Shown here piece by piece: positions 4,780-57,905 of a stretch of DNA of 64,000 nucleotides. The stretch covers positions 13,317,342 through 13,381,341 of the forward strand of contig OZ024810.1 of NCBI GenBank assembly GCA_964017045.1, read 5' to 3'. The translations under genes and the position numbers were made by a program. How positions within the stretch are numbered: position 1 is the stretch's first letter; each line of letters opens with the position of its first letter. The DNA is from Omphiscola glabra. Taxonomy: Eukaryota > Mollusca > Gastropoda > Lymnaeidae. The notes below the pieces were generated by a model. That model did no database searches. It had not been told where the DNA came from and worked only from the letters and a program-made list of their open reading frames with translations.

Positions 4780-7309
4780 ATGCTATCTAACACCGTTGGA
4801 TTTTATGGATGTATGGCTTTGTTATTTATAGGGGGTGAGTTTAATTTTAATATTCTCTTTACCAAAAAAAAAATCATCTTACTAGCTACATATTCTGGAT
4901 CTTAGCTGCATCTCTGAACGGAGGGTCGATGCCCACAACATTTCCATGATAAAAAAAAACGAAGAGAAGTATGTTTGTATGAAACAAACAATATTTAATT
5001 TATCTTAAGCTATAATAGAATTATAAACTATAAAAGAATAATCAACATTGGGTAGGTGAGGAACAAATCCGAGAAACATGAGCGTTACTTGCAAGCCTAC
5101 AAAATTAAACTTAACTTTCAAGTAATTTTGTTGCATATAAATAAGTGTTGATTACAAATTGTTTCAATAGAATAGCATTGAGAGCTGAATTTTCGTCGTA
5201 AATGAGAAACTGCGACTCTAGGTATAGCTTTTTCGTTAGAGCAGCGGGCGTACCCATTTTTGTCCCCGGCCAAAAAAACTTTAAAACGATGCTGATTCAG
5301 TGGGTAGGACTTAATTTAAGGGTTAGAGAAAGTATGGAAAATATATTCCCCATCACTTACAACCTGAGAATCGTCTTCTTCTTCTTGATGTAAAAAAAAG
5401 TTTTGGTCACACTAATAAATGTGTGGCGATAAAAGATCAAGATGTTGCTGATGTTTACATTTCAAATGCCCAGTATGCATTTGAAATATAAAGTAAACGT
5501 GCCGCCAGGGGCGGGGCGCCCAGTTTTCGCCCTTTTCTTTAAATGCTGTACTTCAGGCCCGTTACCTCATTAAAATTTTAAAGTCAAGTAACCGATCAGG
5601 GAGCGATGCTTTTCGTACTTGCAAAAATGAACAGTTCCACATATGTAAAGCCAATTCATTAAAAAGTAGATTGAGATTTGTTGACTTGACGATGTATTTA
5701 TTTAGGTGTCAGCACAGATTCAAACACTCTAGAATTTGTTGAAAACTGCCAGGAGAAAATTGACGTGTGCAAGAGACTTGCATCAACGGATAAGGAGCTT
5801 GTGTAAGAGGAACATTATTTATTTGCTAACATTTCGCCATATGAAATAGGTTTTAATTTCGAGTTCGTTTAGTATTGATTACCTTAATGTATACCTTAGC
5901 CCCAATGGCGCGGGATGGTGGAAGAAGTCTGAGGAAGTGCGAAACCACCAATTGTTGCAGTATTTTTATTTAGTTGCATTGGACATATTTTCGGCCGATT
6001 GCAGTGGTGTTAATAGGGCCTATGGACTAATGCAATCTTAGCTAATGAATGCATTTTTTTAAAATGACGAAATAAATGTAATACTATTGAACGAGTATAT
6101 CCCCCATGTATGTATGAGATTATTCGCTACACTAACACAAAACATATAGTGAAATATTTATTTTTCAGAGAAAAACAAACTGAAATAGCTACATGCTTCT
6201 CGGGCTTCCTCTGCAGGGAGAGTGAAGATGACTCTAGGGTGAAAACCATGTTGGATTTTGGAATAAAAATTGCCAGTAATTACCTCTATTATTATAATTG
6301 TGTTCTAGAAATTTACTAAGAGCTGATCGATGGTTAGAGTTAGGTCCTTTTAAATTACTTTCAAATTTATTTCAATGTTTATGCCACTGGCATTGCTATA
6401 TTCTTGACACTCTTCAGTCTTTGCTCTTCACTTATGGAAGATGCACAGCTCTCAGTATCCTGTCATTCTTAAACTTTGCTTAAGATTTTTTGTAATTTTT
6501 TACAGGCAATGCAATGTAGACACGGCTCTGCTCATCTGTACTTTCAACGCACCGTATGAGTCAGAGAGAGAGAGAGAGAGAGAGAAAGAGTGTATGAGAG
6601 AGAGAGAGTCAGAGAGAGAGAGCAAGAAAGAGACATAGATAGAGTGAGAGATATTGAGAGAGAGAGAGTGTAGGAGAGAGAGAGAGCGAGAAAGAGACAT
6701 AGATAGAGTGAGAGAAAGAGAGTGAGTGTGTGTAGGAGACAGAGAGAGACAGGGTGAAAGAGAGAAAGCGAGAAAGAGACATAGATAGAGTGAGAGAAAG
6801 AGAGAGAGTGTGTGTAGGAGACAGAGAGAGACAGGAAGAGAGAGAGAGAGAGCGCGATAAAGAGAAATAGATATAGTGAGAGAAAGAGACAGTACTGAGA
6901 CGTGTTCAATGTTACACCCGCCAAGTTGATGGCAATTACTACTTTGTTCACCTGATTCATAACAGTTCTTATTTTGTTTCATTTTCTCAAAGTATTTACA
7001 TATTACATCTGACTGTTGTTTAATTTTGTATTCATAATGACAATTCGGCTACAGAGCAAAATAAAACTTAGTTGATGGTATGATGGAATATTTAACAAAT
7101 TTATTCGATAGCAATTAAATAAAATAAGTTCATGTTACAAAGACAGCATTTAAATTGTGTTAAAATGTGTTTCAGATGCTGACGATGCGCTCAAGAACCC
7201 TGCTACAGGGTCCTCAAGTTTAGGGTTGACCATCAGGGTTTCCTACAAGACAATGATCATCAGTGCTGTCACGGCGTTTTTCTCAGCTTGGATATTATTG
7301 AACAATTAA
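4780..7309 (+). CDS. Small secreted, GPI-signal-like 4-Cys protein, copy 1 (intact, 4 exons)
   Basis: Four exons join without a stop: 4780-4834, 5706-5802, 6169-6275 and 7176-7309 (130 codons plus stop; intron phases 1, 2, 1). All introns are GT-AG. Exon 1 encodes a signal peptide (MLSNTVGFYGCMALLFIG). Exon 2 carries ENC-x6-C, exon 3 carries TC-x5-C, and the third cysteine lies 19 residues after the second. Both Cys exons are rich in charged residues spaced as in amphipathic helices. Exon 4 has a small-residue stretch (NPATGSSSLG) and then a hydrophobic terminal segment (TMIISAVTAFFSAWILL), which resembles a GPI-attachment signal or a single membrane anchor. I do not recognise the family. I infer a secreted, surface-anchored helical hairpin with two disulfides. 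Four introns' worth of DNA separates the exons, so ordinary ORF searches miss it. A paralogous gene with the same structure lies at 26066-29122. Confidence 0.82.
4835..5705 (+). other. Intron 1 of gene copy 1
   Basis: The donor GTGAGT and the acceptor TTATTTAG are canonical. The intron holds no recognisable element. Parts are shared with intron 1 of the other copies, for example 'GAGAATCGTCTTCT' at 5345 and again near 10964, 19065 and 26525. Confidence 0.7.
6560..6895. repeat. GA-rich microsatellite in intron 3 of copy 1
   Basis: Interrupted GAGAGA runs with GACATAGATAGAGTGAGAGA segments. The run follows a conserved 'CCGTATGA(A/G)TCAG' motif that also precedes the GA run at 12339 and 21894; the run at 28490 follows a related CGTGAATCAG form. 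The GA run is therefore an ancestral part of this intron. Minus-strand Ser/Leu-rich ORFs across it are artefacts. Confidence 0.9.
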
Positions 7310-7349
7310 CAAGCCATAAAGAGTACTCTAACTGTACTCTTTAAAAAAA

Positions 7350-7355
7350 AATAAA
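7350..7355 (+). terminator. Candidate polyadenylation signal of gene copy 1
   Basis: AATAAA lies 41 bp after the stop codon, inside an A-rich run. It is the first such signal downstream of exon 4. Confidence 0.4.
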
Positions 7356-8980: not shown

Positions 8981-8984
8981 TTAA

Positions 8985-10083: not shown

Positions 10084-10203
10084 TATAACATGTGACAACA
10101 ATGTCCTGTTTAAACAGGTAGTCTAAATGTGTCTCCCTCAAGGCGTGTCCATCTAAAAGTGACCAGGTTTGGGGAGCAGTATCACTCACGCTCGCTGCTT
10201 CGA
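10084..10203 (+). promoter_or_regulatory. Conserved promoter/5' UTR of gene copy 2
   Basis: TATAACAT (10084) and TGTTTAAACAGG (10108) are spaced 24 bp apart. They are followed by a GGCGTGTCCATCTA block and the ATG at 10204, as in the other copies. Confidence 0.4.
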
Positions 10204-10466
10204 GATGCTAAATAGAACCGTGGCATTTTATGGATGTACGGCTCTGTTATTTATATCGGGTACGTTTTCATTTGTTACTCTTACGACATAATGATCTTCC
10301 TAGCTAAATATTCTTGTGCTAGCAATATCTCCTGATGCAGTGTTGGCGTCCACCACATTTGTATGAGCAAAGTAACTATGATAATTTGTTTTTAATGAAA
10401 CAACATAAGAATAAAACTTATCTGAAGCTTTGCTCGAATTATAAAACGACAAAACTATAGTAAAAC

Positions 10467-10655: not shown

Positions 10656-11696
10656 AGTGAACCTCGAGTATGTAAGGGTCAGATTCTAGAATCATGAGAG
10701 TTACTTGCCCGCCTACCAAAGTATACTTAACTTTTCACATACTTTTTTTGCACTAGATATACTTTTTGACTAAAACTTGTTTCAAGAGAATATCATTTAG
10801 AGATTGATTTTTCGTCGTAGATGAGAGACTGTGACTCTGGCTATAGCAGTGGGCGTGGAAATAGTTCCCCAACAAAATATTTGAAATCATGCTGATTCTG
10901 TCGATAAGCTTTAATTTTGGGGAAGCCATTAAAAAATTAAGTTCCCATTGCATACACCTTGAGAATCGTCTTCTATTTGATGTAAAAAGTTTTGGTCACA
11001 AAATAAACGTGGGACAATAACACATCAAGATGTCAGCGATGGTTTGTTTGCATTAACCGTGTTGTCTTTCTTTGAATCTTAAGACAAGAACTGACAATGC
11101 CCAGTATGCATCGATAAAACAAATACGAATGCCAACGGGGATCACCGCCCACTTTGCATCCCTTCCTTACAAGTCCACAAGACTGCATTTCAGGCCATTT
11201 ACCGCCATTGGAATATATTAGTTCAAGTGACCATTCAAGGAGCTCCATATTACGTTCTGAAAATGATTGAATCGTCGACAGTTGGAAATAAAGATGTAAA
11301 AAAAAACCAATCCATTAAAAAGTAGAATGACTTGTTTCCTTATCAATGTAAATTTTTGTAGCTGTCCACATGGATCCAAACGCACTGCCCATTGTTGAAA
11401 ACTGCCGGCAGAAAATTGAGGACTGCAGGAAAATTGCAAAATCGGATAAGGAGATTGCGTGAGAGAAACTAATTTATTTGAGAAGTTTTGCAATATCTAA
11501 TCAAGTATTACTCTCAAGATGTTTTATTATTATGTACGTAAATATGTATATGGTAAATGAAGTAGCGTAGGTAGAAGAATAAGGTAGAGGAGACGCGATA
11601 AGCCAGTGGCGTATCTCATTTTCGTTTTTGATATGAAGGGACACTTTTTTCAGGCCGGGAAGCAGTGATGCTAGAATAAAATGGGTGGGCGTTGTG

Positions 11697-11830: not shown

Positions 11831-12338
11831 TGCTAAACTAACTCAAAACGTATCATCAAATGTTATGTTTTTTCAGAAAAAAATCAAATGAAAATAGCCG
11901 AATGCTTTACACGCTTTGCATGCAAGGACAGTGAAGACGATGCTAGGATAACAGCCATGATGGATATAGGACGCAATATTACCAATAATCAGTTCGATTA
12001 CTAAAAAAAAAAATTTCTAGAAATTTACTAAGAGCTGTTCGATGGTTAGAGATAGGACCTTTTAAATCGCTTTCAGCCTTACGTCAATGCTTATGCCATT
12101 GGCAATGCTTTATATTTATAACTCGTCTGTCTTTCCTCTTTCCTTTTGTTAAGATGCACATCTCTATGTATGTTGGCATTGCTTTATTCTTATAATTCAT
12201 CAGTCTTTGTTCTTCCTTTCGAACAAGATGCATAGCTCTCAGTACTCTGTCCTTTGTAAACTGTTCTTGAGACTTTTTTTGTCATTATCACAGGTATCGC
12301 ATCGATGTATGTTACTCTGTACTGTTGAAACGCCGTAT

Positions 12339-12340
12339 GA

Positions 12341-12380: not shown

Positions 12381-12382
<2 letters not shown>

Positions 12383-12742: not shown

Positions 12743-13060
12743 GATTGTGGTCAGGACAATTATTTTTTCTCTCCGAATTTGTGTGGTTCACATTCTCAAG
12801 CTATTTACATACTATACATGTCTGTTGATTTTCAAACAGTTTCATAACGAAAATTCAAATATAGATACTGAAATTAATGATAGTTCAGATAAAATCAATG
12901 CAATTTAATCGATTTATTAAATCGCAAGTTAAGGATTAAAAACAAATCGTCTTATGTAACAAAGACAACATTTAAATTGTGTTAGTATGTGTTCCAGTGG
13001 CGGACGAGGTGTTCCTGGTGTCCGAAATCCGACCCTCAAGTTTTGCATTGACCATCAGCG

Positions 13061-13440
13061 TTTCCTACAAGACATTGGTTGTTAGTGCTGTCGCGGCGTT
13101 TCCTACAAGACATTGGTTGTTAGTGCTGTCACGGCGTTTCCTACAAGACATTGGTTGTTAGTGCTGTCACGGCGTTTGCTACAAGACATTGGTTGTTAGT
13201 GCTGTCACGGCGTTTCCTACAAGACATTGGTTGTTAGTGCTGTCACGGCGCTTCCTACAAGACATTGGTTGTTAGTGCTGTCACGGCGCTTCCTACAAGA
13301 CATTGGTTGTTAGTGCTGTCACGGCGCTTCCTACAAGACATTGGTTGTTAGTGCTGTCACGGCGCTTCCTACAAGACATTGGTTGTTAGTGCTGTCACGG
13401 CGCTTCCTACAAGACATTGGTTGTTAGTGCTGTCACGGCG
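13061..13440. repeat. 38-bp minisatellite made from exon 4 of copy 2
   Basis: Exactly ten units (380 bp) start TTTCCTACAAGACATTGG and end GCTGTCACGGCG. The unit is the piece of exon 4 that encodes VSYKT..VVSAV in the intact copies. Because 38 is not a multiple of three, the expansion shifts the frame and replaces the hydrophobic tail. Units are nearly identical (a T/C difference near the junction), so the expansion is recent. Confidence 0.95.
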
Positions 13441-13564
13441 TGTCTTTTTATCTTAAATCTAAATGGAAATTGAATAATCCATAAATGTAATCAAATTGTA
13501 AGATTTATAAAAAAATAGATATCTTACGAACGAAAAAGTAATAATTTAATAAACGTGGTGATAA

Positions 13565-14700
13565 AGGCCTCTGACCTCCAAGACTGCGCCCTTAATGTCA
13601 AAAACAAGGGAACTTATTACTGATCGGGATAAACAACTCAAACGGTGGATTGAGCACTACTTGGAACTATACGCAACAATGAACCATGTCTCAACCGCTG
13701 CCCTGGACGATATCCCAGACCTGCCGGTCATGGATGAGCTTGACACCCTACCCACCCTAGAAGAGGTAGGTAGAGCCATCGATTGTCTCGCCTTTGGGAA
13801 AGCCCCTGGCAATGATGGAATTCCACCAGAGGTTCTAAAATGTGGAAAGGAAGTTCTATTACGGCCCTTGCACGATCTCCTTACTATGTGCTGGGAACAG
13901 AGACAGCTACCACAAGAGTTGAAAGATGCAAACATTGTTACATTGTACAAGAACAAAGGAGACAAGAGTGACTGCAACAACTATCGTGGAATCTTCCTTC
14001 TTAGCATAGTTGGAAAGGCCTTCGCCCGAGTTGCATTAACACGCTTGCAGACCCTAGCATCGCGTGTACTCCCAGAATCGCAATGTGGCTTTCGAGCCGG
14101 TAGGTCAACCATAGACATGATCTTCTCTCTGCGTCAGTTGCAGGAGAAATGCAGGGAACAACATATGCCTCTATACATAGCGTTTGTCGACCTCACTAAA
14201 GCTTTTGATCTTGTCAGCAGAAGCGGCCTCTTCCAGATCCTAAAAAAAATAGGCTGCCCTGCACGTCTGCTTAACATCATCGAGCAGTTCCACTATAACA
14301 TGCAGGGCACAGTATGCTATGACGGTGCCACCTCAGAAGCTTTTCCAGTAAGTAGTGGAGTAAAGCAAGGCTGCGTGCTAGCTCCTACTTTATTTGCAAT
14401 CTTCTTCTCCATCGCTGTTGTTCTTGAAGGCATCAACATCTCAAATTGGGAGGACCTGGCGGAGGATCGATCCACATGGCGGGGCATCGTGGAGGAAGGA
14501 TCACTACGTGCCGAGGAGCTCTACAGGGCGGAAGCAGCTGTGAAGAGAGCGCGGAGAAAGGCAAGAAAACACTACTCCACCGCATTCGTGTGCGGGACAT
14601 GCATAAGAGACTGCCATTCAAGGATCGGTCTCATTAGCCACACGAAGAGCTGCAACCAGACAAGATAATATATCGTCTCTCGTAGACGGAAAGATGCCAT
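13565..14700 (+). mobile_element. Internally deleted Jockey/CR1-type LINE
   Basis: A 357-codon open frame (13595-14668) starts inside the reverse transcriptase linker, without an endonuclease. It carries APGNDGIPPE, NNYRGI, GFRAGRSTID, FVDLTKAFD (first catalytic Asp) and GVKQGCVLAPTLF. After FFSIAVVL it jumps to a C-terminal region that ends in a zinc-finger-like C-x2-C-x12-H-x4-C. The segment that should contain the (Y/F)ADD catalytic pair and the thumb is absent, and the deletion keeps the frame open. The copy cannot encode an active enzyme. It lies ~120 bp downstream of the 38-bp array. Clade is uncertain. Confidence 0.85.
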
Positions 14701-18482: not shown

Positions 18483-20015
18483 ATGCTGTCTAACCCCGTG
18501 GCATTTTATGGATGTATGGCTCTGTTATTTGTAGGGTGTAAGTCTTATTTTAATTTTCTCTGGACCAAAAAATTACTTTACTAACTACATATTCTGGATC
18601 CCGTCAAAATCTCTTGATATAGGGTCTCTCCACCGACCCCGTTTCCACATTTTCATGAAAACAGTAACAAAGAGTATTTTTAAAATGAAACCAATAAAAA
18701 TAAAATTATCTTCAGCTTGAATTAAAAATGACAAAAATATAACGGGCATTGAGATGGTAAGGGAACAAATCCAAGAAAAATTTGAGTTACTTGCCAGACT
18801 ACCAAAGTACGTATTTAACTTTCAAGTGAATTTGTTGCATATAAATAAGAAGTGTTGATGACAGCTTGTTTCAAGAGAATAACGTTTATAGCTGGATTTT
18901 CATCGTTGATGAGAAACTGCGACTCAGGGTACAGCTTTTCGTAAGAGCGGCGGGCGTAGAAATTTTGTCGCCGACCAAAAATACTTTAAAACAATGCTGT
19001 TACAGGAGATGGCCTTAAGTTTTGGGGAAGAAGATAGAAATATGTTCTTATCTCTTAAAACGTGAGAATCGTCTTCTACTTGAAACAATATGTTTTTGTC
19101 ACGCAATTAAATGTGGGACAAATAACAAATCAAGATGTCAGTGATGTTTTGTTTGAATTATACGTGTTGTCTTTCCTTGAATCTTAAGACAAGAACTTAC
19201 AATGCCCAATAAAATTAACATGCCGCTAAGGGCTAACCGCCCACTTTGCACCCTTTTCTCACAAGCCTACAAGACTACATCTCAGGCCCGTTTCCGCTTT
19301 GAAAGGTTAAGTTAAGTTTCGAGGTGTTCAAATTACACTGGGGTAATGATTAAAACTTCAGCAGTTTGAAATAAAAATTCAAAACTAAGTTAATTAAATG
19401 GTACGTAAAAACAAAAAGTCCCTTATCAATGTATTTATTGAGAGGACGCCCCGCTAACTGTAGAAAACTGCCGGGAGAAAATTGACGAGTGCAAGAAAAT
19501 TGCAACAACGGATGAGGAGATTGTGTAAGTTGTAAGAGAATCTAAATTATTTTTTTTTTAAAGTTTTGCTACATATAATTAAGTATTTATCTCAAAAACG
19601 TTTAGTATTGTATACCTTGATATATATCTTAAGCACAGTGGCGTGGGAAAGGGAAAAAGCTAGAGGAGGTGCAATACTTTTGGGAAGCAGTCATTTTCTT
19701 TATTCGAAATGGATATATTTTCGGCCGATTGCAGTGGTGTTAGCAAGGGGTGGTGGTGGTGGGCTATTTCAAACTAAGCTAATGCGGCCATTTTTTTTAA
19801 CTGTTGCAATAAATCTAATGATATCGAATGATTACATCCCCATGCGATTGTGATGGTATTTTCTAAACTAAACTCAAAACGTAATATCAAATGTAATTTC
19901 TCTTTCAGAGATTATCAAATGGACATAGCCAAATGCACTGCGAGCTTCTTATGCAAGTACAGATAAGACGAATCTAGGATGAAGGCCATGTTTGATTATG
20001 GGAGCAGAATTGCCG
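18483..20015 (+). pseudogene. Secreted 4-Cys protein gene, copy 3 (disabled)
   Basis: Exon 1 (18483-18537) is intact and encodes the signal MLSNPVAFYGCMALLFVG with a GTAAGT donor. Exon 2 (to 19524) has lost its first bases: the usual TTTATTTAG|GTGTCC... reads TTTATTGAGAG. The only acceptor giving the correct phase (after 19442) makes a TAG codon at the junction. The ENC-x6-C codons remain. Exon 3 (19909-20015, 107 nt, C-x5-C) has an in-frame TAA at 19964, where other copies have GAA. No exon 4 is found downstream before the next unit. These independent lesions make it a clear pseudogene. Confidence 0.85.
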
Positions 20016-26065: not shown

Positions 26066-29000
26066 ATGCTATCTAACGCCGTGGCATTTTATGGATATTT
26101 AGCTCTGTTATTTACCGTGGGTAAGTGTCGATGTCAAATTTCGTTTTACCAAAGTATAGCAGCTCTTATAAGCAAATACGTTATTCTCTGCATCGCTGCA
26201 GATGAATACGGGGAGGAATGTGTATAGTTTGAAGCTATAAAAAGTAAAACTAAGGGTAGAGGAAAACCCGTCTCGTCCACCTTAAGATCTGACTCTTGTC
26301 TGTGTAATGTCTTATTATTACAGACACTTGTCTATAAGTCTATCCATGTGCCGTTGTCTAAGTGTATAATCGACCAAAAAAAAGATCTGCTCATCTCACT
26401 GAAACGGTTAATTGCAATATGATACATTGGTGGTTCACAGACCAAAACAATAGCAGGCAATTATTGGTAGAAGGGACTTTGTTTTGGGGAAGGAGGTATA
26501 AACAAAGGCCCGTCTATTATACCTTGAGAATCGCCTTCTTCTTGATATAATACGTTTTGGTCACACCTATGGATTTGGACGAAGAACAAATCAAGATGTC
26601 ATGAATCGTTTGTTTTAATTATGCGTCTTATCTTTCCTTGAATCTTACGGCAATGACTTACAGTTAACGCTCTGCATTAATACAAATGTAAATACAATTC
26701 AACAGTGGGCTGAGTTCCCCTTCTCCACCCCTTTCTTGTAAGACTGAACTACAGGCCCGTTACCACTATGAAATATTAAGTCAAATAACCATTCGAGGAG
26801 CTCCACCTTGCGTTATGGCAATGCATGCATCTTCCACTGTTTGAAATAAAGATATAGAAAACACATTCATTAGATAGTAGATTGACACTTGTTTCCTTAT
26901 CAATGTATTTATTTAGGTGTCCACGCTGATACCAACGTCCCTGAGATGGTTGAAAACTGCAAGGGTAGAATTGACGAATGCAAGCAAATTGCAACAACGG
27001 ATGCTGAGATTATGTAAGAGAAACTTGATTATTTGTGAAATTTTCGTCCCTGCTACCTAGCATTAATCTCAAGAGTTTTAAGTATGTTGCCCTTAAATAT
27101 ATCGCACGGATGCAGCGACGTGGTAAGGTGAAGACGTTTAGAACGAAAATGTTGTCGTTGCATATATTTTTGGACAATGGCAGAGCTTTCAGGGAGAGGG
27201 CACTAACGAAAGTGCATGCATTTTTTTTTAAATGTCGCAATATACGTACTATTACGGAGCGAGTACGTACTTCTGTTTGTGTGAGAATATTTGCAAACCC
27301 AGCTCACAAACAATCAATAATTTCGTTTTTTTTTGGTTGTTGTCTTTTTCAGAATGAAAGAGAAGGAAATCCTAGGGTGCTTTATGAGCTTTATATGCAA
27401 GGAGGGGGAAGATGAACATAGGGTGAAGACTTTGATGGGATATGGAGGAAGGATTGCCAGTGAGTACATTGATTAAAAGGGTTGTTCTTTACAACGTTTA
27501 ATGAGAGCTGAACGATAGTTAGAATTAGGAACTTTGAAATTGCTTCCAGTTCTGCTACGCACCGGAATATCTGAAAGAACTAATTCACGCATCCTTAAAG
27601 AAACTGAGGTCTTCTACACAGTCCTTACTAACAATTTCCAGTGTGGGTGAACACAGAAAAAAGTCTTACGGATAGCGCCAAAATTATGGAATAGTTTGCC
27701 TCAAACTTTGAGGGGTACTGAAAAGGATAAAACATCATTTAAGAAAAATTTTAAAACGTTTTTGCTTAAATAGATTTAGGAAAACCAGAGAGCAGTGAGC
27801 ATGCTAAGGTAGCAAGGATACCAGCGCTATATAACATCAGAGCGCAGTGAGCATGCTAAAGTAGCAAGGATACCAGCGCTATATAACATCAGAGCGCAGT
27901 GAGCATGCTAAAGTAGCAAGGATACCAGCGCTATATAACATCAGAGCGCAGTGAGCATGCTAAAGTAGCATGGATACCAGCGCTATATAACATCAGAGCA
28001 CAGTGAGCATGCTAAAGTAGCATGGATACCAGCGCTATATAACATCAGAGCGCAGTGAGCATGCTAAAGTAGCATGGATACCAGCGCTATAAAAATATCC
28101 AATCAATCTGTCAATCTTTGCGCAATTGGCGTTACTTTAAGCGTGTAACACGTCAGTCGCTGCTCGTCCCTAGAAGAGCGTGTTTAGGGCTCTGGTCTTC
28201 TTAAATCAGCGGTTCTCAACCTGTGGGTCGCGACCCCTTTGTGGGTCGTACGACCCTTTCCCAGGAGTCGCCTAACACAATCTGAAAACACATATGCTCT
28301 ACACCGATGAAGTAATTTTGTGACTGCGGGTCGCCACAAAAATAGGAAATGTCTTTAAGGGTCGCGGCATTAGGAAAGTTGAGAACCACTGTCTTAAATA
28401 GTTCGTGAGACTTTTATGATGATGCCAGGTAAGCAACGACGGCAGGGCTCTACTAGTTACGTACTTTCAAAACCCCGCGTGAATCAGTGAAAGAGAGAGA
28501 GAGAGAGAGAGAATGAGAGAGAGATTAGCCAACTGAACGTAATATACGACTGGTTGTCCCCTTGTCACGCGAACTTTTCGTGCATTAAATATCACTGACT
28601 TCATCCAGAAAACTGGGACGTTGAAGCCTGGCTCCGTTTGTTAAACTTCAGAACATGACTCTCACGCTTTTAGTATCGTTAAAAGTTTGTTATAGTAAGA
28701 ACTACACTTTGTTCGCCCGAATCTTCCATATGTTGTTCAGTTTCTAAGAGTATAATACATACTTTTTTAGACTGTTGGTGTTAATCTTTTTTCATCTTGA
28801 AAAATTCAACCATATTGTCCAATAAACGATATTTCAGATAAAATCAATGAAATATATTCGATTTATTAAATTGTAAGCTTAGATTTAACAAAAAAAATCT
28901 TTATGGGCTTAGTGGTAAGTTAACAAAGACAAACTTCAAATTGTGTTAAAATGTGTTGCAGTGGCGGACATTGACCCGTCTCTTCTGGAAACATGGCAAG

Positions 29001-29122
29001 GCGACGAGCTTGACTTAGATCCAGCTATCACCATTAAGCCCTCAAATTTGGCAGTGATCGTGAGCTTTTCCTACAAGACAATGGTCGCCGCCAGCGCTGT
29101 CGCGGTGTTCCTCTTAGCTTAG
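26066..29122 (+). CDS. Small secreted, GPI-signal-like 4-Cys protein, copy 4 (intact, 4 exons)
   Basis: Exons 26066-26120, 26917-27013, 27353-27459 and 28962-29122 join into 139 codons plus stop, with intron phases 1, 2, 1 and canonical GT-AG sites. The signal is MLSNAVAFYGYLALLFTV. Exon 2 has ENC-x6-C, exon 3 has GC-x5-C, and 19 residues lie between the pairs. Exon 4 is 27 nt longer than in copy 1: an acidic linker (LLETWQGDELDLD) precedes the hydrophobic tail (MVAASAVAVFLLA), which ends at the stop as GPI signals do. Exon 1 is nearly identical to that of copies 1-3, while exons 2-4 differ at many residues. Intron 3 hosts a LINE tail, a 52-bp array and a hAT MITE without harm to the coding parts. 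Function unknown. Confidence 0.82.
27550..28110 (+). mobile_element. CR1/L2-like LINE 3' end with a 52-bp terminal repeat
   Basis: The codons starting near APEYLKEL and a frameshifted PKLWNSLP region match the LINE at 2162-3640. The end segment CAGAGCGCAGTGAGCATGCT...GCTATATAACAT (52 bp) is tandemly repeated about six times (27785-28092) before the usual TATCCAATCAATC end. It is inserted in intron 3 of gene copy 4. Confidence 0.85.
28207..28391. mobile_element. hAT-type MITE with perfect target duplication
   Basis: 185 bp. Ends CAGCGGTTCTCAACCTG and AAAGTTGAGAACCACTG are inverted repeats. TCTTAAAT is duplicated exactly on both sides (28199-28206 and 28392-28399). The 'GGTTCTCAAC' ends are typical of a widespread hAT group. 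The interior is rich in GGGTCGCGACCC palindromes. Confidence 0.93.
28490..28527. repeat. GA microsatellite in intron 3 of copy 4
   Basis: GA run after a GTGAATCAG motif. It is equivalent to the GA runs in copies 1-3 and confirms the shared ancestry of intron 3. Confidence 0.85.
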
Positions 29123-34385: not shown

Positions 34386-34559
34386 TCAGAAGTGAGCCAG
34401 ACCGAGTACTGTGACCAGGCAGGCAGCTACGACCTTGAAGGTGACCTTGTTGGCCGGGGCAACGTTTGTTGAATGTCCGTATCTTGGACGTCCTCCGCGC
34501 ATTTTCCCTTTGGCTAAACCATAATAATAACTTGAGTTTTATAAACATTTATAAAATTA

Positions 34560-35640: not shown

Positions 35641-36054
35641 TGCGTTCTATACAAAAAAATAATTTAGATTTAAAAAGGGACTATGTTTGTTGCAACCAGG
35701 TGAAATGGTTTAACGCCTTCTTTAATCTCTTGCTGACCGCTGGCTTCTTGTTTTCTTAGCAACGTTTTGTGCATTATTTGTGTAATTGTTTGTCTTATTC
35801 TGTCACCGTTTGTTATGCTGTATTGAAATAACTTGTATCATCACTCCTAAAGCGTGGCTTGCATTAAGTAGATCAAAGATTAAAGTTTGAATCTATTTAC
35901 CGTCGGCTCTTCTTTCAGCTCTTTGCCTCAGATCCTCGCGTATAGAGTCTTCCCCTGGGTTACACTTGAAACTCGAGAAGCACCTTATCTGCTCTTCGCT
36001 CCTTTTTCTGCAAGATATTAAAGTTAACTTATGCGTGTATGTTCAGTGTAATAT

Positions 36055-36400: not shown

Positions 36401-37061
36401 GATTTTTAAAAAACAAATAACAATACACTTCATCCTCCTCGTCAAATGCCACCTTCTTGCACTCCTCGATACTCTCAAAACAGGTTTTCGGCCACATCCT
36501 GGCATAGCACTGTGGTCACTGTGGAGATAAAGAGCGAGTTAGCCCTTAAAGAAACAGTTTACTTCTCTGTGCTTTTTGTGCCTTAATCTGAAATGGCAAG
36601 TCATTATACCAGAATGTGTCTAATTCAATGGTATATTTATGAATATTTTTTAGACTAAATCACTTCAATGTAGAGTAAATTATATAACCCCCCCCCAAAA
36701 AAAAAAAATCTCGGATAACCTATATTGTATATACAGATTAAAAATCAATTTGCAATGAGATTTAAGCATACAGACAAAATTCAATTTATTGTACAGCGCA
36801 AAATACATCATACATGAGGACATTTTGTCGGCGTTCGTTTTGTTCTGGTTGATATAGCCTCTCCAGGATTTCACAACCTGGTTCCTTATCAGATATTGCT
36901 TTATTACCATTTATTAAGAATGTATAAGTTGTGTGAAATGACAGGACTTTGCGTGCTACAAGGTATCGATTATAAGATCTAGTTAAGGATGGGAGCAAGA
37001 CGAGGTCACATGTTGTTGACCTAATTTTCCCGGTGAACAAGGAACAAAGAAATGAGAGCAT

Positions 37062-37882: not shown

Positions 37883-38966
37883 CACCGAAATCACATAAAA
37901 GAACACACATAAAATAAATACCGATAAGTATATGTGGATAGATGACGCACTATCTGAAATATTTATTATAGATTATGCAACTCTTCCTCTATTTTACACG
38001 CACAACGTTGTTGCGTTCTTTCATTTTGTATTTATTTATCAGCCACATATCACTCATTCAATCTATGTACCCACATGCTAAGCATGAGATCGACAGAAAG
38101 CCCCACAGACTCACTGAATGCATCCTACTGATGAATTCTGAACAAAGTCACCGATGACACGATGCACTGGGGTGAGGTACGCTTGGTCAGATGTTTAACG
38201 AAATATAATTTGATTATAATATTAATATAAAAAAAAATAATATCTAATATTCTTGTTTGTGAGCGACTACAAACTATACACTCATAACATAAAAAGAAAC
38301 AAAACAAAGAAAAACAGCACGAACCAATACATTTTTTTTCATTTAAAAACTTAATTAATAAATCATTAAAATTAAATGTACAAGTATACGAAATTAATAT
38401 TTCCAGTTAACAAAGTGTCTTGAAATGACTTGTTTCTTTGTTTATTTGATGGCATTCAAAATCCATCTTACACCCGAGATTCCACGTGAACCATTTTACT
38501 ATTTCTTAAACTGATACTTTCTTACTGTTTTTTTGCAAAGTCGTTTCAGTAATGATCTCAATATAGAACGGGAGCTCCTTTTTAAGGGCTTTTATTTCAC
38601 GTTTCCACGCCCTGTCCATCTAAATTAAGTTACGACAGTTGTAGTGATCAATGTCTACTAACAGTACATCATATAGTATAGTATTTTTTGATTTCTTAAC
38701 ACCCTTATCCAATTTCGTCAATATCAAGTGTTCACAATATGGCTAAAAATGTATGGAGCAAGTGTTAAGGAATTTGTCTTTATGTTAGCATACTTTCTTA
38801 ATTACTTTTGTGTGTTCTTTAAATGTGAAGGGAATGCCATCCATATGTAACAGACCTTAAACATCTTTTTCGTTATTAATTTAATATTTCATGATACAAG
38901 TGTGGATTTTTTTTAAAAAAAGAGTTATTTAAAATACAGGTAAATTCTGAGAGATCTATCCGGGTC
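37883..38966. other. AT-rich spacer, no gene
   Basis: No coding signal, repeats or recognisable element, apart from a segment near 38060-38170 similar to 59060-59170 (upstream DNA of the minus copies). Confidence 0.4.
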
Positions 38967-49236: not shown

Positions 49237-52200
49237 TCAGAACTTTGTTACGCCAAGTACTGCAAACAAGCAGACAGCTACGAACTTGAAGGTGACCTTA
49301 TTAACCGGAGCACTATTTATATCACGAAATCGACCTCCTAAGAAAGGGTGTTCCCGAACGGCTAAAAAATGATAATAACTTTATTTTATTACTATTATAC
49401 ACTCTTGAGAATGAAGACAGACTAGTGATATGAGACAATGAAATAAACGATGTAATATGAGAAAAAAATAATTTAACAATGCGAGCCAGCACGCTGGTAG
49501 ACACTAAACAGACTATTGTTTGTCAGACTTTAAAAGACATCGTTATCAAATGAACAATGAGGGTATTTTACAGTAACAATTGAGCTATGTCATTAGGAGA
49601 TAGGGTGACGACCAATGGGAGGTGTAGAGGTAGAAGAAAAACTAAGATATGACGTAAAGATTAAAGGATTATTTGAACATTAGGAGGCTCGTGTTTGAAA
49701 GACAACTCGATGGAAGGATTATTACCCTGTATGATTACCAATAAGAGGAATGACGTAAGTAAGAAGGCAGCATGTCGAGCAATGGAAGATATGGTTTTAT
49801 GATTCAATGTGATGATCAAATTGAGGTATGGATTTTGGAGACAATGTAAAAACACAAGTAATGTGAGGTATGGCGTTAGGAGAGAGTGCACTGAACAACG
49901 TAATATATGGCGTTAGGAGAGAGTGCAATGAACAACGTAACGTATGGCGTTAGGAGAGAGTGCAATGAACAACGTTGTGTATGGCGTTAAGAGAGAGTGC
50001 AATGAACAACGTAATGTATGGCGTTAGGAGAGAGGGCATAGAACAACGTAATGTATGGCGTTAGGAAAGAGTGCAATAAACAACGTAATGTATGGAGTTA
50101 GGAGAGAGGGCATAGAACAACGTAATGTATGGAGTTAGGAGAGAGGGCATAGAACAACGTAATGTATGGAGTTAGGAGAGAGGGCATAGAACAGCGTAAT
50201 GTATGGCGTTATGAGAGAGGGCAATGAACAACGTAATGTATGGAGTTAGGAGAGAGGGCATAGAACAACGTAATGTAAGGAGTTAGGAGAGAGGGCATAG
50301 AACAACGTAATGTATGGAGTTAGGAGAGAGGGCATAGAACAGCGTAATGTATGGCGTTATGAGAGAGGGCATTGAACAACGTAATGTATGGCATTAGGAG
50401 AGAGTGCAATGAACAACGTATTGTAAGGAGTTATGAGAGAGGGCATTGCACAACGTAATGTATGGCGTTAGGAGAGAGTGCAATAAACAAACGTAATGTA
50501 AGGAGTTAGGAGAGAGGGCATTGCACAACGTAATGTATGGAGTTAGGAGAGAGGGCATAGAACAACGTAATGTAAGGAGTTAGGAGAGAGGGCAAAGAAC
50601 AACGTAATGTATGGAGTTAGGAGAGAGGGCATAGAACAACGTAATGTATGGAGTTAGGAGAGAGGGCATAGAACAACGTATTGTATGGAGTTAGGAGAGA
50701 GGGCATAGAACAGCGTAATGTATGGCGTTATGAGAGAGGGCATTGAACAACGTAATGTATGGAGTTAGGACAGAGTGCAATGAACAACGTTATGTATGGC
50801 GTTAAGAGAGAGTGCAATGAACAACGTAATGTATGGCGTTAGGAGAGAGGGCATTGCACAACGTAATGTATGGCGTTAGGAGAGAGGGCATTGCACAACG
50901 TAATGTATGGCGTTAGGAGAGAGTGCAATGAACAACGTAATGTATGGCGTTAGGAGAGAGGGCATTGCACAACGTAATGTATGGCGTTAAGAGAGAGTGC
51001 AATGAACAACGTAATGTATGGCGTTAGGAGAGAGGGCATTGAACAACGTAATGTATGGCGTTAGGAGAGAGTGCAATGAACAACGTAATGTATGGCGTTA
51101 GGAGAGAGGGCATTGCACAACGTAATGTATGGCGTTAGGAGACAGTGCAATGAACAACGTAATGTATGGCGTTAGGAGAGAGGGCATTGCACAACGTAAT
51201 GTATGGCGTTAGAAGAGAGTGCAATGAACAACGTAATGTTCGGCGTTAGGAGAGAGGGCATTGCACAACGTAATGTATGGCGTTAGGAGAGAGTGCAATG
51301 AACAACGTAATGTATGGCGTTAGGAGAGAGGGCATTGCACAACGTAATGTATGGCGTTAAGAGAGAGTGCAATGAACAACGTAATGTATGGCGTTAGGAG
51401 AGAGGGCATTGAACAACGTAATGTATGGAGTAAGGAGAGAGTGCAATGAACAACGTAATGTATGGCGTTAGGAGAGAGGGCATTGCACAACGTAATGTAT
51501 GACGTGAGGAGAGTGGGCATAGAACAACGTAATGTATGGAGTTAGGAGAGAGGGCATAGAACAACGTAATGTATGGAGTTAGGAGAGAGGGCATAGAACA
51601 ACGTAATGTATGGAGTTAGGAGAGAGGGCATAGAACAACGTAATGTATGGAGTTAGGATAGAGGGCATAGAACAACGTAATGTATGGAGTTAGGAGAGAG
51701 GGCATAGAACAACGTTATGTATGGAGTTAGGAGAGAGGGCATAGAACAACGTAATGTATGGAGTTAGGATAGAGGGCATAGAACAACGTAATGTATGGAG
51801 TTAGGAGAGAGGGCATAGAACAACGTTATGTATGGAGTTAGGAGAGAGGGCATAGAACAGCGTAATGTATGGCGTTATGAGAGAGGGCATTGAACAACGT
51901 AATGTATGGAGTTAGGAGAGAGGGCATAGAACAACGTAATGTAAGGAGTTAGGAGAAAGGGCATAGAACAACGTAATGTATGGAGTTAGGAGAGAGGGCA
52001 TAGAACAACGTAATGTATGGAGTTAGGAGAGAGGGCATAGAACAGCGTAATGTATGGCGTTATGAGAGAGGGCATTGAACAACGTAATGTATGGAGTTAG
52101 GAGAGAGGGCATAGAACAACGTAATGTAAGAAGTTAGGAGAGAGTGCACTGAACAAAGTAACGTATGGCGTTAGAAGAGGGTGCAATGAACAATGTAATG

Positions 52201-55200
52201 TATGGCTTTAGGAGAGAGTGCACTGAACAACGTAATGCATGGCGTTAGGAGAGAGTGCAATGAACAACGTTATGTATGGCGTTAAGAGAGAGTGCAGTGA
52301 ACAACGTAATATATGGAGTTAGGAGAGAGGGCATAGAACAACGTAATGTATGGCGTTAGGAGAGAGTGCAATGAACAACGTTATGTATGGCGTTAAGAGA
52401 GAGTGCAATGAACAACGTAATATATGGAGTTAGGAGAGAGGGCATAGAACAACGTAATGTATGGAGTTAGGAGAGAGGGCATAGAACAACGTAATGTATG
52501 GCGTTATGAGAGAGGGCATAGAACAACGTAATGTATGGAGTTAGGAGAGAGGGCATAGAACAACGTAATGTATGGAGTTAGGAGAAAGGGCATAGAACAA
52601 CGTAATGTATGGCGTTAGGAGAGAGGGCATAGAACAACGTAATGTATGGAGTTAGGAGAGAGGGCATAGAACAACGTAATGTATGGAGTTAGGAGAGAGG
52701 GCATAGAACAACGTAATGTATGGAGTTAGGAGAAAGGGCATAGAACAACGTAATGTATGGCGTTAGGAGAGAGGGCATAGAACAACGTAATGTATGGAGT
52801 TAGGAGAGAGGGCATAGAACAACGTAATGTATGGAGTTAGGAGAGAGTGCAATGAACAATGTAATGTGTGGCGTTAGGAGATAGAAAGATTCAATGAACA
52901 ATATGAGGTATGTGTTTTTCAGACGGCATGATTAACAGTGGGAGAAATATAGTGAGGCAAGACAACAGCACGATGAAAACACAATGTGATGAATGCATAA
53001 TCAGTCATGTTGAACGATTGGAAATATTGGTTCTGTGAGACATTAATATGATCAGCGTGAGGTGTGGATTTAGGAGACAGTGTCATGGCATGACTATGGT
53101 ATGGTGTTAACAAAACAAAACAAAAAATGTCATGAACCATGTGTGCCGTTGCGCTTGTATACGGCGAGAAGGACAATGTGATGTGTGGCCTTTTTGGGAC
53201 AGGGTGAAGAAATGAGCAGTGTGGGGGAGGTTGATATGACATGGTGTGGTGAACAATGAGGGGTTTGGAGTTAGAAGGCAATGTGATGAAATGAACGTGG
53301 GTTTGTTTTGTTTTTTTTTGCATTAAGTGACAGCGTGGTGAACATTAGAAGGAATGATGATAAAAATCAAAGTCATGAAATGAAAGCTGAGATTTAAGCA
53401 GTTAGGACACATCGTAATAAACTATGGGAGAAATGATATTAACCGACTGTGTGAGACACAATGAGAGCTATAACGCTAGAAGACAATGTATTGAACTGAA
53501 CTATTGGAGGTACTCTTGTATGGAAAATGTACGATGGGGCGTTCGGCTTGAAGAGACAGCGTGGCAAAGAAAGATAATGTGATGATTGGGGTTAGGAGAC
53601 GGCGTGAACAATGTGAGGTACATGGCGTTAGGATACTACGTGATAAACACATTTATGGCTGTGGTTAGGAGACGTTAACTGAAGATACGACCCTAGGAGA
53701 CTTCACAATGAAATGAGGAAAAGGAGGATTAGCGTAGATTGACAACTAGGTGAACATTGGGAGATATAATATAATATGACAAGGCGATAAACAATGGCGG
53801 GTATGGCGTTATGAGATGGTCGGGAATATAGCAGTACTAAGTCTGGCACGAGGAGTCAGCTTCATGCACGTCACGAGGTATGAGTCAAGGAGACAGCGTC
53901 ATGCACGTCAAGAAGTATGACGGTATGAGATGGTCGTGAATATAGCAGTAGGAAGTCTGGCACGAGGAGTCAGCTTCATGCACGTCAATAGGTATGGAGA
54001 CAGCGTCATGAAACACAAAACGGAAGGCATTGTGTTAGGAGACAAAAAGGAAATAAACTATGAGGTAAGGCGTTAAGGAGATGTGTTATAAGGAGACAGT
54101 TTGTTGAAAAATGTAATATATTTCACAATGAAAAATGATGATGAAATGAACAATGCCAGTATGGCGCTAGGAGAAGCCGTCATTAACAAAATTGCAAGTT
54201 TGGCGTTAGGGGACATCGTCAAGAAATAAACATTGGGAGGATGTTTCATAAGTAGACAGTTTGTTGAAAAATAGAAAAAGTGGCGTTAAAATAAAATTTG
54301 ATTAAATTTAACAATGGTCGTTTTTACATCGTTATGGAAATCGGGAGATTTAGCCCTAGTAGAAAATGTCTTGAAATTAATAAGAAATTATGACGATAAG
54401 CAATGTGATGTGAGGTGTTGTGAGAAGGAATGATAAAAAATGAACAATGGGATGTTAGGTGTTATGAGAAGGAGTGATAAAGTGGATAATGGGATCTGAG
54501 GCGTTATGAGAAAGGATGATGTAGTGAACAATGGGATGTGATGCGTTATAAACATATGTGATACAATGAACAATGGGATGTGTTTACGTGATGTGAGCCG
54601 CTATGATATAAATGATGAAATGACATGGCTTTATTGACTAATGTGATGAATTGAAAAATGAGTATTAAGCGTTCGCAGTTAATGTGTTGAAACGAACAAT
54701 TAGATTTATAGTATAAGTTCATTATGTCATTTTGGCGCTATTAAAACATGTAAGGAAGTTGAAAATGAGAGTCACGCGTTTGGAGATAATGTGATGAAAT
54801 AAATAGTACGAGTTATAGGGTCATGAATAATGATATTCACTGGGGTAGAGTGAACCAAGATTAACACTGCAATTTAAATAAGAGAAAAATGTAATTTAAA
54901 TTTTATTTTTAAGAATGACGCATTAAGACTTAGTGATGACTTTTGTTCTTGGAATTTAACTGACGAATAAAAATAGTGCATGTGTCTCAAAGCTATTCAA
55001 TGTTTTCAACAGTGCATTTTAAATCTAGTGATAATAAATTGTTTTCAATAGAACATTTTAAATCTAGTGATAATAAATTGTTTTCAATAGAACATTTTAA
55101 ATCTAGTGATAATAAATTGTTTTCAATAGAACATTTTAAATCTAGTGATAATAAATGGTTTTCAATAGAACATTTTAAATCTAGTGATAATAAATTGTTT

Positions 55201-57905
55201 TCAATAGAACATTTTAAATCTAGTGATAATAAATTGTTTTCAATAGAACATTTTAAATTTAGTGAGATTAAATTGTTTTCAATAGAATATTTTAAATCTG
55301 GTTATAATGAACTGTTTTCAAAAAGTAACTAATAAAAACGATTTGTTGAAGCTAAATGAAATTCGTTATGGCCTATTTGAGTCTCGTGCTCACCTCTCGC
55401 TTCTTGTCTTCTTATCAAAACGATGTGCATTGTTGGTCTCGATGTTTGTGTTATTATGTCACTGTTTGTAAAGTTGCATTGAAATAACTCGTATCATCCT
55501 CCCTAACGCATGGTCCGCATTAACTGGAATAAGATTGATGTTTGAATCTATTTACCTTCGAATCTTGCGGAAGCCACCTTCTTCAGATCTTCGCGTTTGG
55601 AGTCCTCCCCTGGGTTACACTTGAAACTTGATAAGCAATCCATCTGATATTCGATCATCTCTCTGGAACATAGAGACGACGAATTTCTCATTGGATGAAT
55701 TTAAAAAAAAAAAACGATTGTTTCAGAACAATAATTGTGTATGTCATGTGCCCATCGAAACATACAAGCATAAAAAAATAAGGCCGTTCATTATGTAACG
55801 GTTATGCTCTAACCAAAGTCTTTTGAGGTGCTTACACGACATTCAAGTAACACTAAATAACACTCTGCCTATTCGATGAAATTTACGAAGCTAAGGCACT
55901 AAAGGCAGACAGGCATTTTGAATTGAGTTTCAGTGGTACCCAAATTGTTTCGATATTTTAGGAAAATGACACCGAGACACCTTCACATGTGTCTTATTTA
56001 TAATTATGTACGTGATGACAGATCAATAAAATACATTTTTAAGTGCATCATTTTTTAAATTGTAATATAGTATTATTGAATGTAACCACATTTTCTCATG
56101 TTCGCTTATCAACTTCTGTTTAAACACAATCTACTCCTGTTTAAACACAATCTCTCTTTCTCTTTCGCCTTTTCGTCCTCGAGGTACAGCAGCCGATCTT
56201 CATCGACGTCTGTGATTAGGACATTGGCCGCCTACAAGAGCCCTCCAGGCATCACGATCCTGAGCCAATCTCTCCAGCCTCCCCCAAGTGTGGCCAAGTT
56301 TCTTGGTATCCGCCTCCACTTCACGGCGCCAAGTGTTCTTAGGCCTGCCTCTTTTCCGTTTTCCTTGAGGGTTCCAATTCAATGCTTGTCTAGTTATGCT
56401 GGAGGCAGGTTTCCTGAGCGTATGGCCAATCCATCTCCATCTTCTCTGGAGGATCTCTTGTTCTACAGGTTCTTGCTTTGTCCGCTGCCACAGTTTCTGG
56501 TTGCTGATTCTGTCGGGCAAATGAATCCCGAGAATCCTTCTTAAGCAGTTATTGATGAAGGACTGGATTCTCTTCATATTCCCATCAGTGATTCTCCATG
56601 GTTCTGCACCATACAGTAGAACCGGTTTCACCATTGTGTTGAAGGTTCTGATCTTCAGTTTGGTATTTAGGTGTTTGGAGGCCCAGACATTTTTTATTTG
56701 TTGGAAGGCTTCCCGTGCCTTTCCTACCCTTATTTTGATGTCAGCATCTGTCCCACCTTGCTTGTCCACGATGCTGCCAAGGTAGACAAAGCTCTCTACC
56801 TCCTCGAGCGCTTCCTCTTTGAGCCTGATGGGTGCTGTATTGGTAGCGGCATTGACCTTGAGGACCTTGCTCTTCCCCTTGTGAATATTAAGACCAATAC
56901 GTGCAGAAGTGTCTGCAATATTTCTGGACACAATCTAGTCGTGTTTAAATACAATCAACTCATGTTTAAACACTATCTACTCATGTTTCAACACAATCTA
57001 CTCACGTTCAAACACAATCTACTCATGTTCAAACACCAATATACTCATGTTCAAACACCAATCTACTCGTGTTCAAACACCATCTACTCTTGTTCAATCA
57101 CCAACTGTTCATGTTTAGCTATTATCTGCTCTTGTTTGACTACCATATAGCATTCTCCAAACAACACCCTCATCTTGTTCGACAAACAAATACCCTTATT
57201 TCTTTACTACCCAAAACTGTTTAACCTAACTAACATCAAATCTTGTTTAGCCACCATCTACTTTTCTTATGTGTCATATAATCACGTTTCAGCGCAATCT
57301 AATATTGATTAACTACCATCTACTCTTCTTAAACTAGTATATAATCAATTCTTTTTCTTAAATAAAAAATAAAAATAAAAATAAAAACAAAAAAACAAAT
57401 AACAATACACTTCAAACTCCTCATCTAATGCCACGTTCTTGCACTCTTCGATTCTCTCATTGCAGTTTGCCACCACATCCTGGCATAGAACTGTGGTCAC
57501 TGTGGAGATAAAGATGGAATCAACTCTGGGGGAACAATGTACTTCTCTGGGCACATGTTCTTTTAAAACAAATGGTCAGTTATTATCCTCGAATATATTG
57601 TTTTCTTACCATTTTTTTCAAACATAGTCGCTCAAAATTGTATGTAATTTGACAAGTCATTGTGAATATTGTGTGTAAAATTACATGTCCATGTGAATAT
57701 TGTGTGTAAAATGACAAGCCCGTGTGAATATTGTGTGTAAAATGACATGTCATTATGAAAATTGTGTGTAAAATGACATGTCATTGTGAATATTGCGTGG
57801 ACTATCAGGTCTCTATTTGAATATCTAGTTAAGGATAAAACCAAGACGAGGACCGCCTTTCTTGACACACTCTTGCCACTGAACAAGCAACGAGTAAATG
57901 TATGA
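49237..57905 (-). CDS. Diverged secreted 4-Cys protein gene, minus-strand copy B
   Basis: Minus-strand exons 2-4: 57499-57409, 55662-55556 (107 nt) and 49361-49237. They join without a stop in phases 1/2/1, as in the plus-strand family. Exon 2 encodes VLC-x6-C-x6-C (an extra cysteine one heptad upstream of the family pair), exon 3 DC-x5-C within [17 protein letters not shown], and exon 4 ends in a hydrophobic tail ([19 protein letters not shown]) just before TGA, as in a GPI signal. Exon 2 to 3 uses donor GTATTG, the others GTAAAT. The first exon is the weak point: the position homologous to copy A's exon 1 (about 57905-57877) has no ATG, although it could end at a GC donor (GCAAGAG). Intron 3 is 6.2 kb and is mainly a 37-bp satellite; intron 2 hosts a LINE. 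Three coding exons look constrained, but expression is uncertain. Confidence 0.68.
49362..49857. repeat. Diverged edge of the 37-bp satellite
   Basis: Words such as GTTAGGAGACA, GTGATGA and TGAACAATG occur at irregular spacing, grading into the regular array. Confidence 0.6.
49858..52885. repeat. 37-bp satellite array, ~82 units
   Basis: The consensus is ACAACGTAATGTATGGCGTT then AGGAGAGAGTGCAATGA. Two main variants differ at two places: GGCGTT...AGTGCAATGA and GGAGTT...AGGGCATAGA, with a third ending GGGCATTGC. In 50930-51480 the first and third alternate regularly, a 74-bp higher-order dimer. In 51530-51850 and 52500-52830 the second is homogeneous. Several larger blocks are repeated as well, for example around 'GAACAGCGTAATGTATGGCG' at 50190, 50340, 50710, 51860 and 52040. 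Short minus-strand ORFs are artefacts. Confidence 0.97.
52886..54900. repeat. Diverged flank of the 37-bp satellite in intron 3 of copy B
   Basis: Irregular copies of GTTAGGAGACAGCGTGATGA and AATGAACAATG(G/T)GA. A ~120-bp local duplication lies at 53810-54000 (GCACGAGGAGTCAGCTTCAT twice). No coding sequence. Confidence 0.7.
55000..55325. repeat. 39-bp minisatellite
   Basis: Eight units of GTTTTCAATAGAACATTTTA...GTGATAATAAATT. The plus strand reads as 13-residue repeats ([13 protein letters not shown]). It lies in intron 3 of copy B, ~230 bp from exon 3. Not a gene. Confidence 0.95.
55663..56089. other. Intron 2 of copy B, unique part
   Basis: Noncoding DNA with no element recognised. Confidence 0.5.
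56090..57330. repeat. ~24-bp intron repeat interrupted by a LINE
   Basis: Units like CATGTTCAAACACAATCTACT occur on both sides of the LINE at 56168-56934 (56098-56160 and 56935-57330) and grade into diverged forms. The family is shared with intron 2 of copy A. Confidence 0.8.
56168..56934 (-). mobile_element. RTE/Jockey-type LINE, 3' part
   Basis: A 243-codon minus-strand frame (56931-56200) encodes the end of a reverse transcriptase. It has [28 protein letters not shown], the thumb with [12 protein letters not shown], and the C-terminal [19 protein letters not shown] and [14 protein letters not shown] motifs. The catalytic palm is absent (5' truncation). The 3' end has a GAAAG-rich tail. 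ACACAATCT on both sides is the likely target duplication. The open frame shows that the insertion is young. It lies in intron 2 of copy B. Confidence 0.9.
57640..57815. repeat. ~32-bp minisatellite in intron 1 of copy B
   Basis: Five units of GTGAATATTGTGTGTAAAAT followed by GACATGTCATT. Not coding. Confidence 0.9.

What the first reader, a model, noticed from the sequence alone, without database searches (positions are those of the whole stretch)
4780..57905. Hidden family of six four-exon genes for small secreted, Cys-paired, tail-anchored proteins
Seen: six sets of exons with the same phases (1/2/1), exon 3 of 107 nt in five copies, exon 2 of 97 nt (plus strand) or 91-92 nt (minus strand), the same order signal / C-x6-C / C-x5-C / hydrophobic tail, and two copies open from ATG to stop (4780-7309, 26066-29122). 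All exons are 55-161 nt, so ORF searches show only fragments. Known: tandem families of short secreted proteins are often immune, reproductive or venom-related effectors. Inferred: this is such a family, which I cannot match to a named one.
Basis: partly seen in the sequence, partly recalled or inferred. Interest (0 to 1): 0.9.

Follow-up and report, generated by a model that had tools for sequence, protein, structure and literature searches.

The report
Snail cluster of small surface proteins
A pond-snail-type genome carries a tandem cluster of short four-exon genes for small, probably lipid-anchored cell-surface proteins that match no named family; half of the six copies in this window look intact, and their job is unknown.

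Summary
The window holds six copies of a four-exon gene (phases 1/2/1; signal, C-x6-C, C-x5-C, hydrophobic tail). True starts of the minus copies are 59128 and 38123. c2, c3 and c6 are broken. The eight database relatives found are unnamed Lymnaea stagnalis proteins; with the window copies they form two subfamilies, A (plus strand) and B (minus strand). In the window's own genome the matches at E <= 1 lie at one locus of about 207 kb: A 21 of 21 plus strand, B 25 of 25 minus strand. Three more intact genes flank the window. dN/dS is below 1 with bootstrap support in 4 of 6 pairs; the youngest pair shows no constraint. No Pfam, NCBIfam or PDB sequence match reached E 0.001. 'Tail-anchored' is better read as a GPI-attachment signal. 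Best reading: a fast-turnover family of GPI-anchored, disulfide-braced helical surface proteins, most likely for recognition or adhesion. That role is inferred, not shown.

The parts
4780..4834 (+). c1 (subfamily A, intact) exon 1: signal peptide, phase 1
5706..5802 (+). c1 exon 2 (97 nt): C-x6-C
6169..6275 (+). c1 exon 3 (107 nt): C-x5-C
7176..7309 (+). c1 exon 4 (134 nt): linker, GPI-like tail, stop
   Evidence: tail hydropathy
10205..10259 (+). c2 (A, broken) exon 1
11362..11458 (+). c2 exon 2 (97 nt)
11877..11984 (+). c2 exon 3 (108 nt, frameshifted; donor lost)
12998..13441 (+). c2 exon 4 running into a 38-bp tandem array (13058-13441) built from its own tail-coding segment
18483..18536 (+). 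c3 (A, broken) exon 1 (54 nt as cut; 55 nt if the donor is taken one base later)
19443..19524 (+). c3 exon 2, shortened to 82 nt
19909..20015 (+). c3 exon 3 with an in-frame stop; no exon 4 found
26066..26120 (+). c4 (A, intact) exon 1
26917..27013 (+). c4 exon 2
27353..27459 (+). c4 exon 3
28962..29122 (+). c4 exon 4 (161 nt)
38075..38123 (-). c6 (subfamily B, broken) exon 1
36427..36518 (-). c6 exon 2 (92 nt, 1-nt frameshift)
   Evidence: coordinates counted by hand from the sequence printed
35901..36007 (-). c6 exon 3 (107 nt)
   Evidence: coordinates counted by hand
34386..34513 (-). c6 exon 4: GPI-like tail, stop
   Evidence: coordinates counted by hand from the sequence printed
59080..59128 (-). 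c5 (B, intact) exon 1
57409..57499 (-). c5 exon 2 (91 nt)
55556..55662 (-). c5 exon 3 (107 nt)
49237..49361 (-). c5 exon 4 (125 nt): linker, GPI-like tail, stop

Best explanation
This is part of a tandem, birth-and-death cluster of genes for small cell-surface proteins, so far found only in this genome and in L. stagnalis. Each gene has four short exons. Exon 1 encodes the signal peptide. Exons 2 and 3 encode a roughly 65-residue helical module, probably braced by two disulfides between the C-x6-C helix and the C-x5-C segment. Exon 4 encodes a short linker and a hydrophobic C-terminus that is most likely exchanged for a GPI anchor. The mature product would be a helical knob of about 80-100 residues on the outer cell surface, with no cytoplasmic part. 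SHOWN: gene structure, open frames in six genes, two conserved subfamilies in two snail genomes, one chromosomal locus, long-term purifying selection in most pairs tested, several broken copies. INFERRED: GPI anchoring, disulfide pairing, and a role in recognition or adhesion at the surface (immune or reproductive) rather than catalysis.
For: Six genes, three in the window (c1, c4, c5) and three beside it (c0, c7, c8), read from ATG to a single stop with phases 1/2/1 and 18 of 18 GT and 18 of 18 AG splice ends. Eight annotated L. stagnalis proteins align along their length with them. The trees give two 100/100 subfamilies, each with members from both genomes, and a cross-genome pair c5-P0006 (98/97, 98/94); c4-P0003 is 88/94 but an open fork in the larger tree. 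dN/dS and bootstrap: c1-c4 0.54 (0.32-0.79), c0-c4 0.50 (0.33-0.78), c5-c7 0.42 (0.27-0.69), c5-c8 0.52 (0.29-0.90). Invariant in the eight L. stagnalis proteins: N-C-x-E-x4-C, C-x5-C, one D, one R; in the 13-row alignment with the window copies the second cysteine pair, D and R stay invariant, N and the first pair nearly so. AlphaFold2 gives helices over the core, block pLDDT about 70-89. C-terminal 14-residue hydropathy maxima are 1.7-2.6 in 11 of 11 proteins examined, and the last 13-19 residues are uncharged in 10 of 11. Own-genome matches at E <= 1 all lie on contig C18: A 21 of 21, B 25 of 25.
Against: No RNA or protein evidence was seen. The youngest pair, c0-c1, has dN/dS 1.18 (0.53-3.43), and c7-c8 0.73 (0.46-1.29), so recent constraint is not shown. 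In 2 of 6 exon comparisons with broken copies dN exceeds dS. Wrong-frame readings of c1-c4 give 0.78 and 0.85 against 0.55, a modest contrast. Introns align between copies about as well as exons (66-83%). Whole-model pLDDT is only 65-69, pTM 0.46-0.47. No trained GPI or signal-peptide predictor was available; c5 has a Lys as its second-last residue, and in P0002 and P0004 the most hydrophobic stretch lies just before the terminal one. Nothing measured bears on function.
Confidence: 0.6

Rival explanations
1. A snail immune-recognition cluster that works like the Biomphalaria GRC/PTC2 transmembrane clusters: variable surface proteins whose alleles decide compatibility with trematodes.
For: One dense cluster of paralogs with several broken copies and paralog identity of 0.49-0.82, no relatives found outside L. 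stagnalis, surface-type layout. In the passages read, PTC2 genes also lack known domains and show paralog similarity under 50% (PMC7494358).
Against: No expression, polymorphism or association data. The proteins are shorter (117-139 aa against 166-530 codons in PTC2), lack a cytoplasmic part and are predicted helical, whereas GRC ectodomains are described as beta-rich (PMC4361660).
Confidence: 0.25
2. A gamete or accessory-gland surface family shaped by sexual conflict in these hermaphrodites.
For: Apparent lineage restriction, divergence of cross-genome relatives (best 56-67% amino-acid identity), turnover by duplication and loss; such patterns are common for reproductive proteins (recalled).
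Against: No tissue data; equally expected for immune genes.
Confidence: 0.25
3. A freely secreted peptide family such as a toxin, pheromone or antimicrobial.
For: Signal peptide, short length and paired cysteines; three of the eight L. stagnalis relatives (P0005, P0006, P0008) carry the UniRef label 'Secreted protein'.
Against: The hydrophobic C-terminus of exon 4 is kept in 11 of 11 proteins examined; a soluble peptide would not need it.
Confidence: 0.12
4. A decayed family: relics with chance open frames.
For: In the window 3 of 6 copies are broken; introns align about as well as exons between copies (66-83%).
Against: Six full-length open genes with all splice ends kept, dN/dS below 1 in 4 of 6 pairs, annotated full-length relatives in a second genome.
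Confidence: 0.06

Closest known systems
Unnamed Lymnaea stagnalis proteins P0001-P0008 (NCBI/UniRef, no precomputed Pfam domain)
   Same: Similar length, signal, cysteine pattern and tail; both subfamilies A (P0001-4) and B (P0005-8).
   Different: Best identity of a window copy to them is 56-67%, so they are relatives and not alleles; A and B proteins are listed on contigs of different length (623,041 and 2,213,957 bases).
Biomphalaria GRC (grctm1-7) and PTC2 single-pass transmembrane clusters
   Same: Snail clusters of divergent surface-protein genes.
   Different: Longer proteins; GRC transmembrane helix more than 50 residues from either end, beta-rich ectodomains, four genes with FN3 domains (passages read). 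No sequence comparison was made here.
CRASP of Achatina achatina (PMC4596865)
   Same: Small helical, disulfide-braced, taxonomically restricted snail protein (passages read).
   Different: Soluble, 158 residues, ten cysteines, N-glycosylated. No sequence comparison was made here.
GPI-anchored small surface proteins in general (e.g. Ly6/uPAR; recalled)
   Same: Signal peptide plus C-terminal GPI-type tail, tandem families.
   Different: Ly6 domains are beta three-finger folds with 8-10 cysteines (recalled); no Pfam match here.

Membership tests
GPI-anchored protein (layout) | N-terminal signal peptide | tested here: met
   12-residue hydropathy maximum 1.8-2.6 within the first 26 residues in 11 of 11 proteins examined; hydropathy only, no trained predictor
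GPI-anchored protein (layout) | Hydrophobic stretch at the C-terminus, no cytoplasmic tail | tested here: met
   14-residue maximum 1.7-2.6 near the end in 11 of 11; last 13-19 residues uncharged in 10 of 11, c5 has a Lys as second-last residue
GPI-anchored protein (layout) | Small-residue omega site and spacer accepted by transamidase | tested here: inconclusive
   Ser/Gly/Asn/Ala residues stand before the tail by eye; no predictor or experiment
Biomphalaria GRC TM1 genes | Transmembrane helix more than 50 residues from either end | tested here: not met
   Hydrophobic segment is terminal; feature from passages of PMC4361660
Biomphalaria GRC TM1 genes | Ectodomain rich in beta-strand (some with FN3) | tested here: inconclusive
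   Model is helical but mean pLDDT is only 65-69; no FN3 family among the Pfam hits
Biomphalaria PTC2 TM1 genes | 166-530 codons | tested here: not met
   117-139 aa in six intact genes; feature from passages of PMC7494358
Biomphalaria GRC/PTC2 | High allelic diversity tied to parasite resistance | not testable with these tools
   single genome only
CRASP | Ten cysteines, soluble, 158 residues | tested here: not met
   Four cysteines conserved in the core, hydrophobic tail, 117-139 aa; feature from passages of PMC4596865
Ly6/uPAR | Match to a Ly6-type Pfam family | tested here: not met
   Not among the families listed at E up to 10 for the 6 rows of A2 or the 8 of A5

The most novel reading that the evidence does not exclude
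The locus is a lymnaeid-specific recognition complex: two convergent arrays (A on plus, B on minus) of GPI-anchored helical proteins with an uncharacterised core fold. It would turn over like GRC/PTC2 but be unrelated to them, and its copy content and alleles would decide parasite compatibility or mating compatibility.
Probability: 0.17. Interest if true: 0.75.

Novelty: new variant of a known kind. Interest (0 to 1): 0.45.

Why it matters
It adds an undescribed, apparently lineage-restricted surface-protein family, invisible to ORF searches and unnamed in databases, in a snail group whose members carry trematodes (recalled) and are models for hermaphrodite reproduction (recalled). The locus is compact and its gene models are precise, so expression, polymorphism and anchoring can be tested directly.

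Tried and rejected

Wrong-frame control for c1-c4: NG86 dN/dS 0.78 and 0.85 in the two wrong frames against 0.55 in frame, so the signal is modest.

The genome-wide search with the C-type fragment did not complete, so the reach of that third group is unknown. The viral fold library and the PADLOC and PHROGs libraries were not used.

Full report
Observation. The six exon sets exist. I rebuilt each gene from the sequence. c1 (4780-7309), c4 (26066-29122) and c5 (59128-49237, minus strand) are open from ATG to a single stop, with 130, 139 and 123 codons before the stop and intron phases 1/2/1. c2 has a frameshift at the start of exon 3, has lost the donor after exon 3, and its exon 4 runs into a 38-bp array. 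c3 has a shortened exon 2, a stop in exon 3 and no exon 4. c6 has a 1-nt frameshift in exon 2. Exon-specific HMMs find these exons at 18-81 bits (the low end being halves of split exons), against a best of 12.5 bits in ten Markov-shuffled windows. The HMMs hold c1, c4, c5 and partly c6, so part of that is self-match; c1 alone and L. stagnalis peptides alone also find the other copies. Chance is excluded.

Correction. The finding ends at 57905, where no family exon lies. The L. stagnalis B proteins begin with MH and a LWGFL-ISCLA-like signal, and such peptides are encoded at 59128-59080 and 38123-38075. With that exon c5 becomes a third intact gene. Its intron 2 holds an ORF with a Pfam DUF6451 hit, and its 6.2-kb intron 3 contains the 3-kb 37-bp satellite at 49868-52881.

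Relatives. A search with c1 alone found nothing. The six-row alignment found seven proteins at E 7e-28 to 9e-21 (7 of 882 candidates), all Lymnaea stagnalis, unnamed or labelled 'Secreted protein'; a wider alignment added an eighth (6 of 4373 candidates; two of the earlier seven were not listed). They align along their length with the spliced window genes. The trees split all rows into two fully supported subfamilies, each holding both genomes. c5 pairs with P0006 (98/97 and 98/94). c4 pairs with P0003 in one tree (88/94), while in the larger one they lie at an open fork. The two subfamilies therefore predate the split of the two genomes.

Locus. The window is G000:C18:13317342-13381341 of a 744.8-Mb assembly in 37 contigs. 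c1 matches 21 places, all on C18 plus strand, 13303.6-13344.8 kb (22 candidates scored). c5 matches 25 places, all on C18 minus strand, 13351.7-13510.9 kb (27 candidates scored). Both lists use E <= 1, so the weakest rows rest on their position, and the tool calls its counts lower bounds. In the flanks fetched three more genes are intact: c0 (130 aa), c7 (119 aa) and c8 (117 aa). Others are broken or partial. The six intact genes have 18 of 18 GT donors and 18 of 18 AG acceptors. Two more distant relatives (C-type) lie left of A, on both strands.

Selection. NG86 ratios are: c1-c4 0.54, c0-c4 0.50, c5-c7 0.42, c5-c8 0.52, c7-c8 0.73, c0-c1 1.18. Bootstrap intervals exclude 1 in the first four and include it in the last two. 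Other estimators give a weaker signal for c1-c4, and 2 of 6 exon comparisons with broken copies have dN above dS; the wrong-frame control is 0.78-0.85. So older paralogs show constraint, and the recent pair shows none that can be measured.

Architecture. Invariant in the eight L. stagnalis proteins: Met1, N-C-x-E-x4-C, C-x5-C, Asp and Arg; in the 13-row alignment the second cysteine pair, Asp and Arg. Models are helical over the core, with mean pLDDT 65.2 and 69.2. No solved structure is convincingly similar. The C-terminus is hydrophobic in 11 of 11 proteins examined, and the linker before it carries a computed net positive charge in 7 of 14 proteins above +2, six of them among the seven B proteins. 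A signal peptide with a terminal hydrophobic tail is the recalled layout of GPI-anchored proteins. That is why I prefer GPI to 'tail-anchored', a term for proteins without a signal peptide (recalled).

How it most likely works. The exon 2-3 module is displayed on the outer cell surface by a lipid anchor and binds another surface or soluble partner. Duplication and loss at one locus change the set of modules. Immune recognition and reproductive recognition are about equally likely, and nothing here separates them. The nearest functional precedent read is the GRC/PTC2 clusters of Biomphalaria (passages). Length and position of the membrane segment differ, so this is not filed as a member of that group.

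Verdict. A real, unnamed, apparently snail-restricted gene family in a large tandem cluster.

Noticed in passing
13058-13441; and about 320-670 bases left of the window (L024): Two copies (c2 and the next copy left of c1) each carry a 38-bp tandem array made from their own exon-4 tail segment. Unit variants differ between the two arrays, suggesting independent amplification of the same segment.
   Followed up: partly
L022 and L028, window coordinates about -21.7 to -21.2 kb (+) and -36.2 to -37.1 kb (-): More distant relatives (C-type) with the same exon 2/3 cysteine pattern; the genome-wide search with one of them did not complete.
   Followed up: partly
49868-52881: A 3-kb, 81-copy satellite of 37 bp lies inside intron 3 of the intact gene c5.
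   Followed up: no
2865-3308 (-), 13595-14668 (+), 60279-60952 (+), 56200-56931 (-): Reverse-transcriptase fragments (Pfam RVT_1, two of the four hits below Pfam's cut-off), and a DUF6451 ORF inside intron 2 of c5.
   Followed up: partly
58134-58299 and 62703-62861: An 86% identical repeat that contains a hydrophobic stretch resembling a signal peptide but with no ATG in frame; not part of the genes.
   Followed up: yes
113118-108895 in window coordinates (L030, minus strand): A further B copy in which only exons 1 and 4 were recognised.
   Followed up: no
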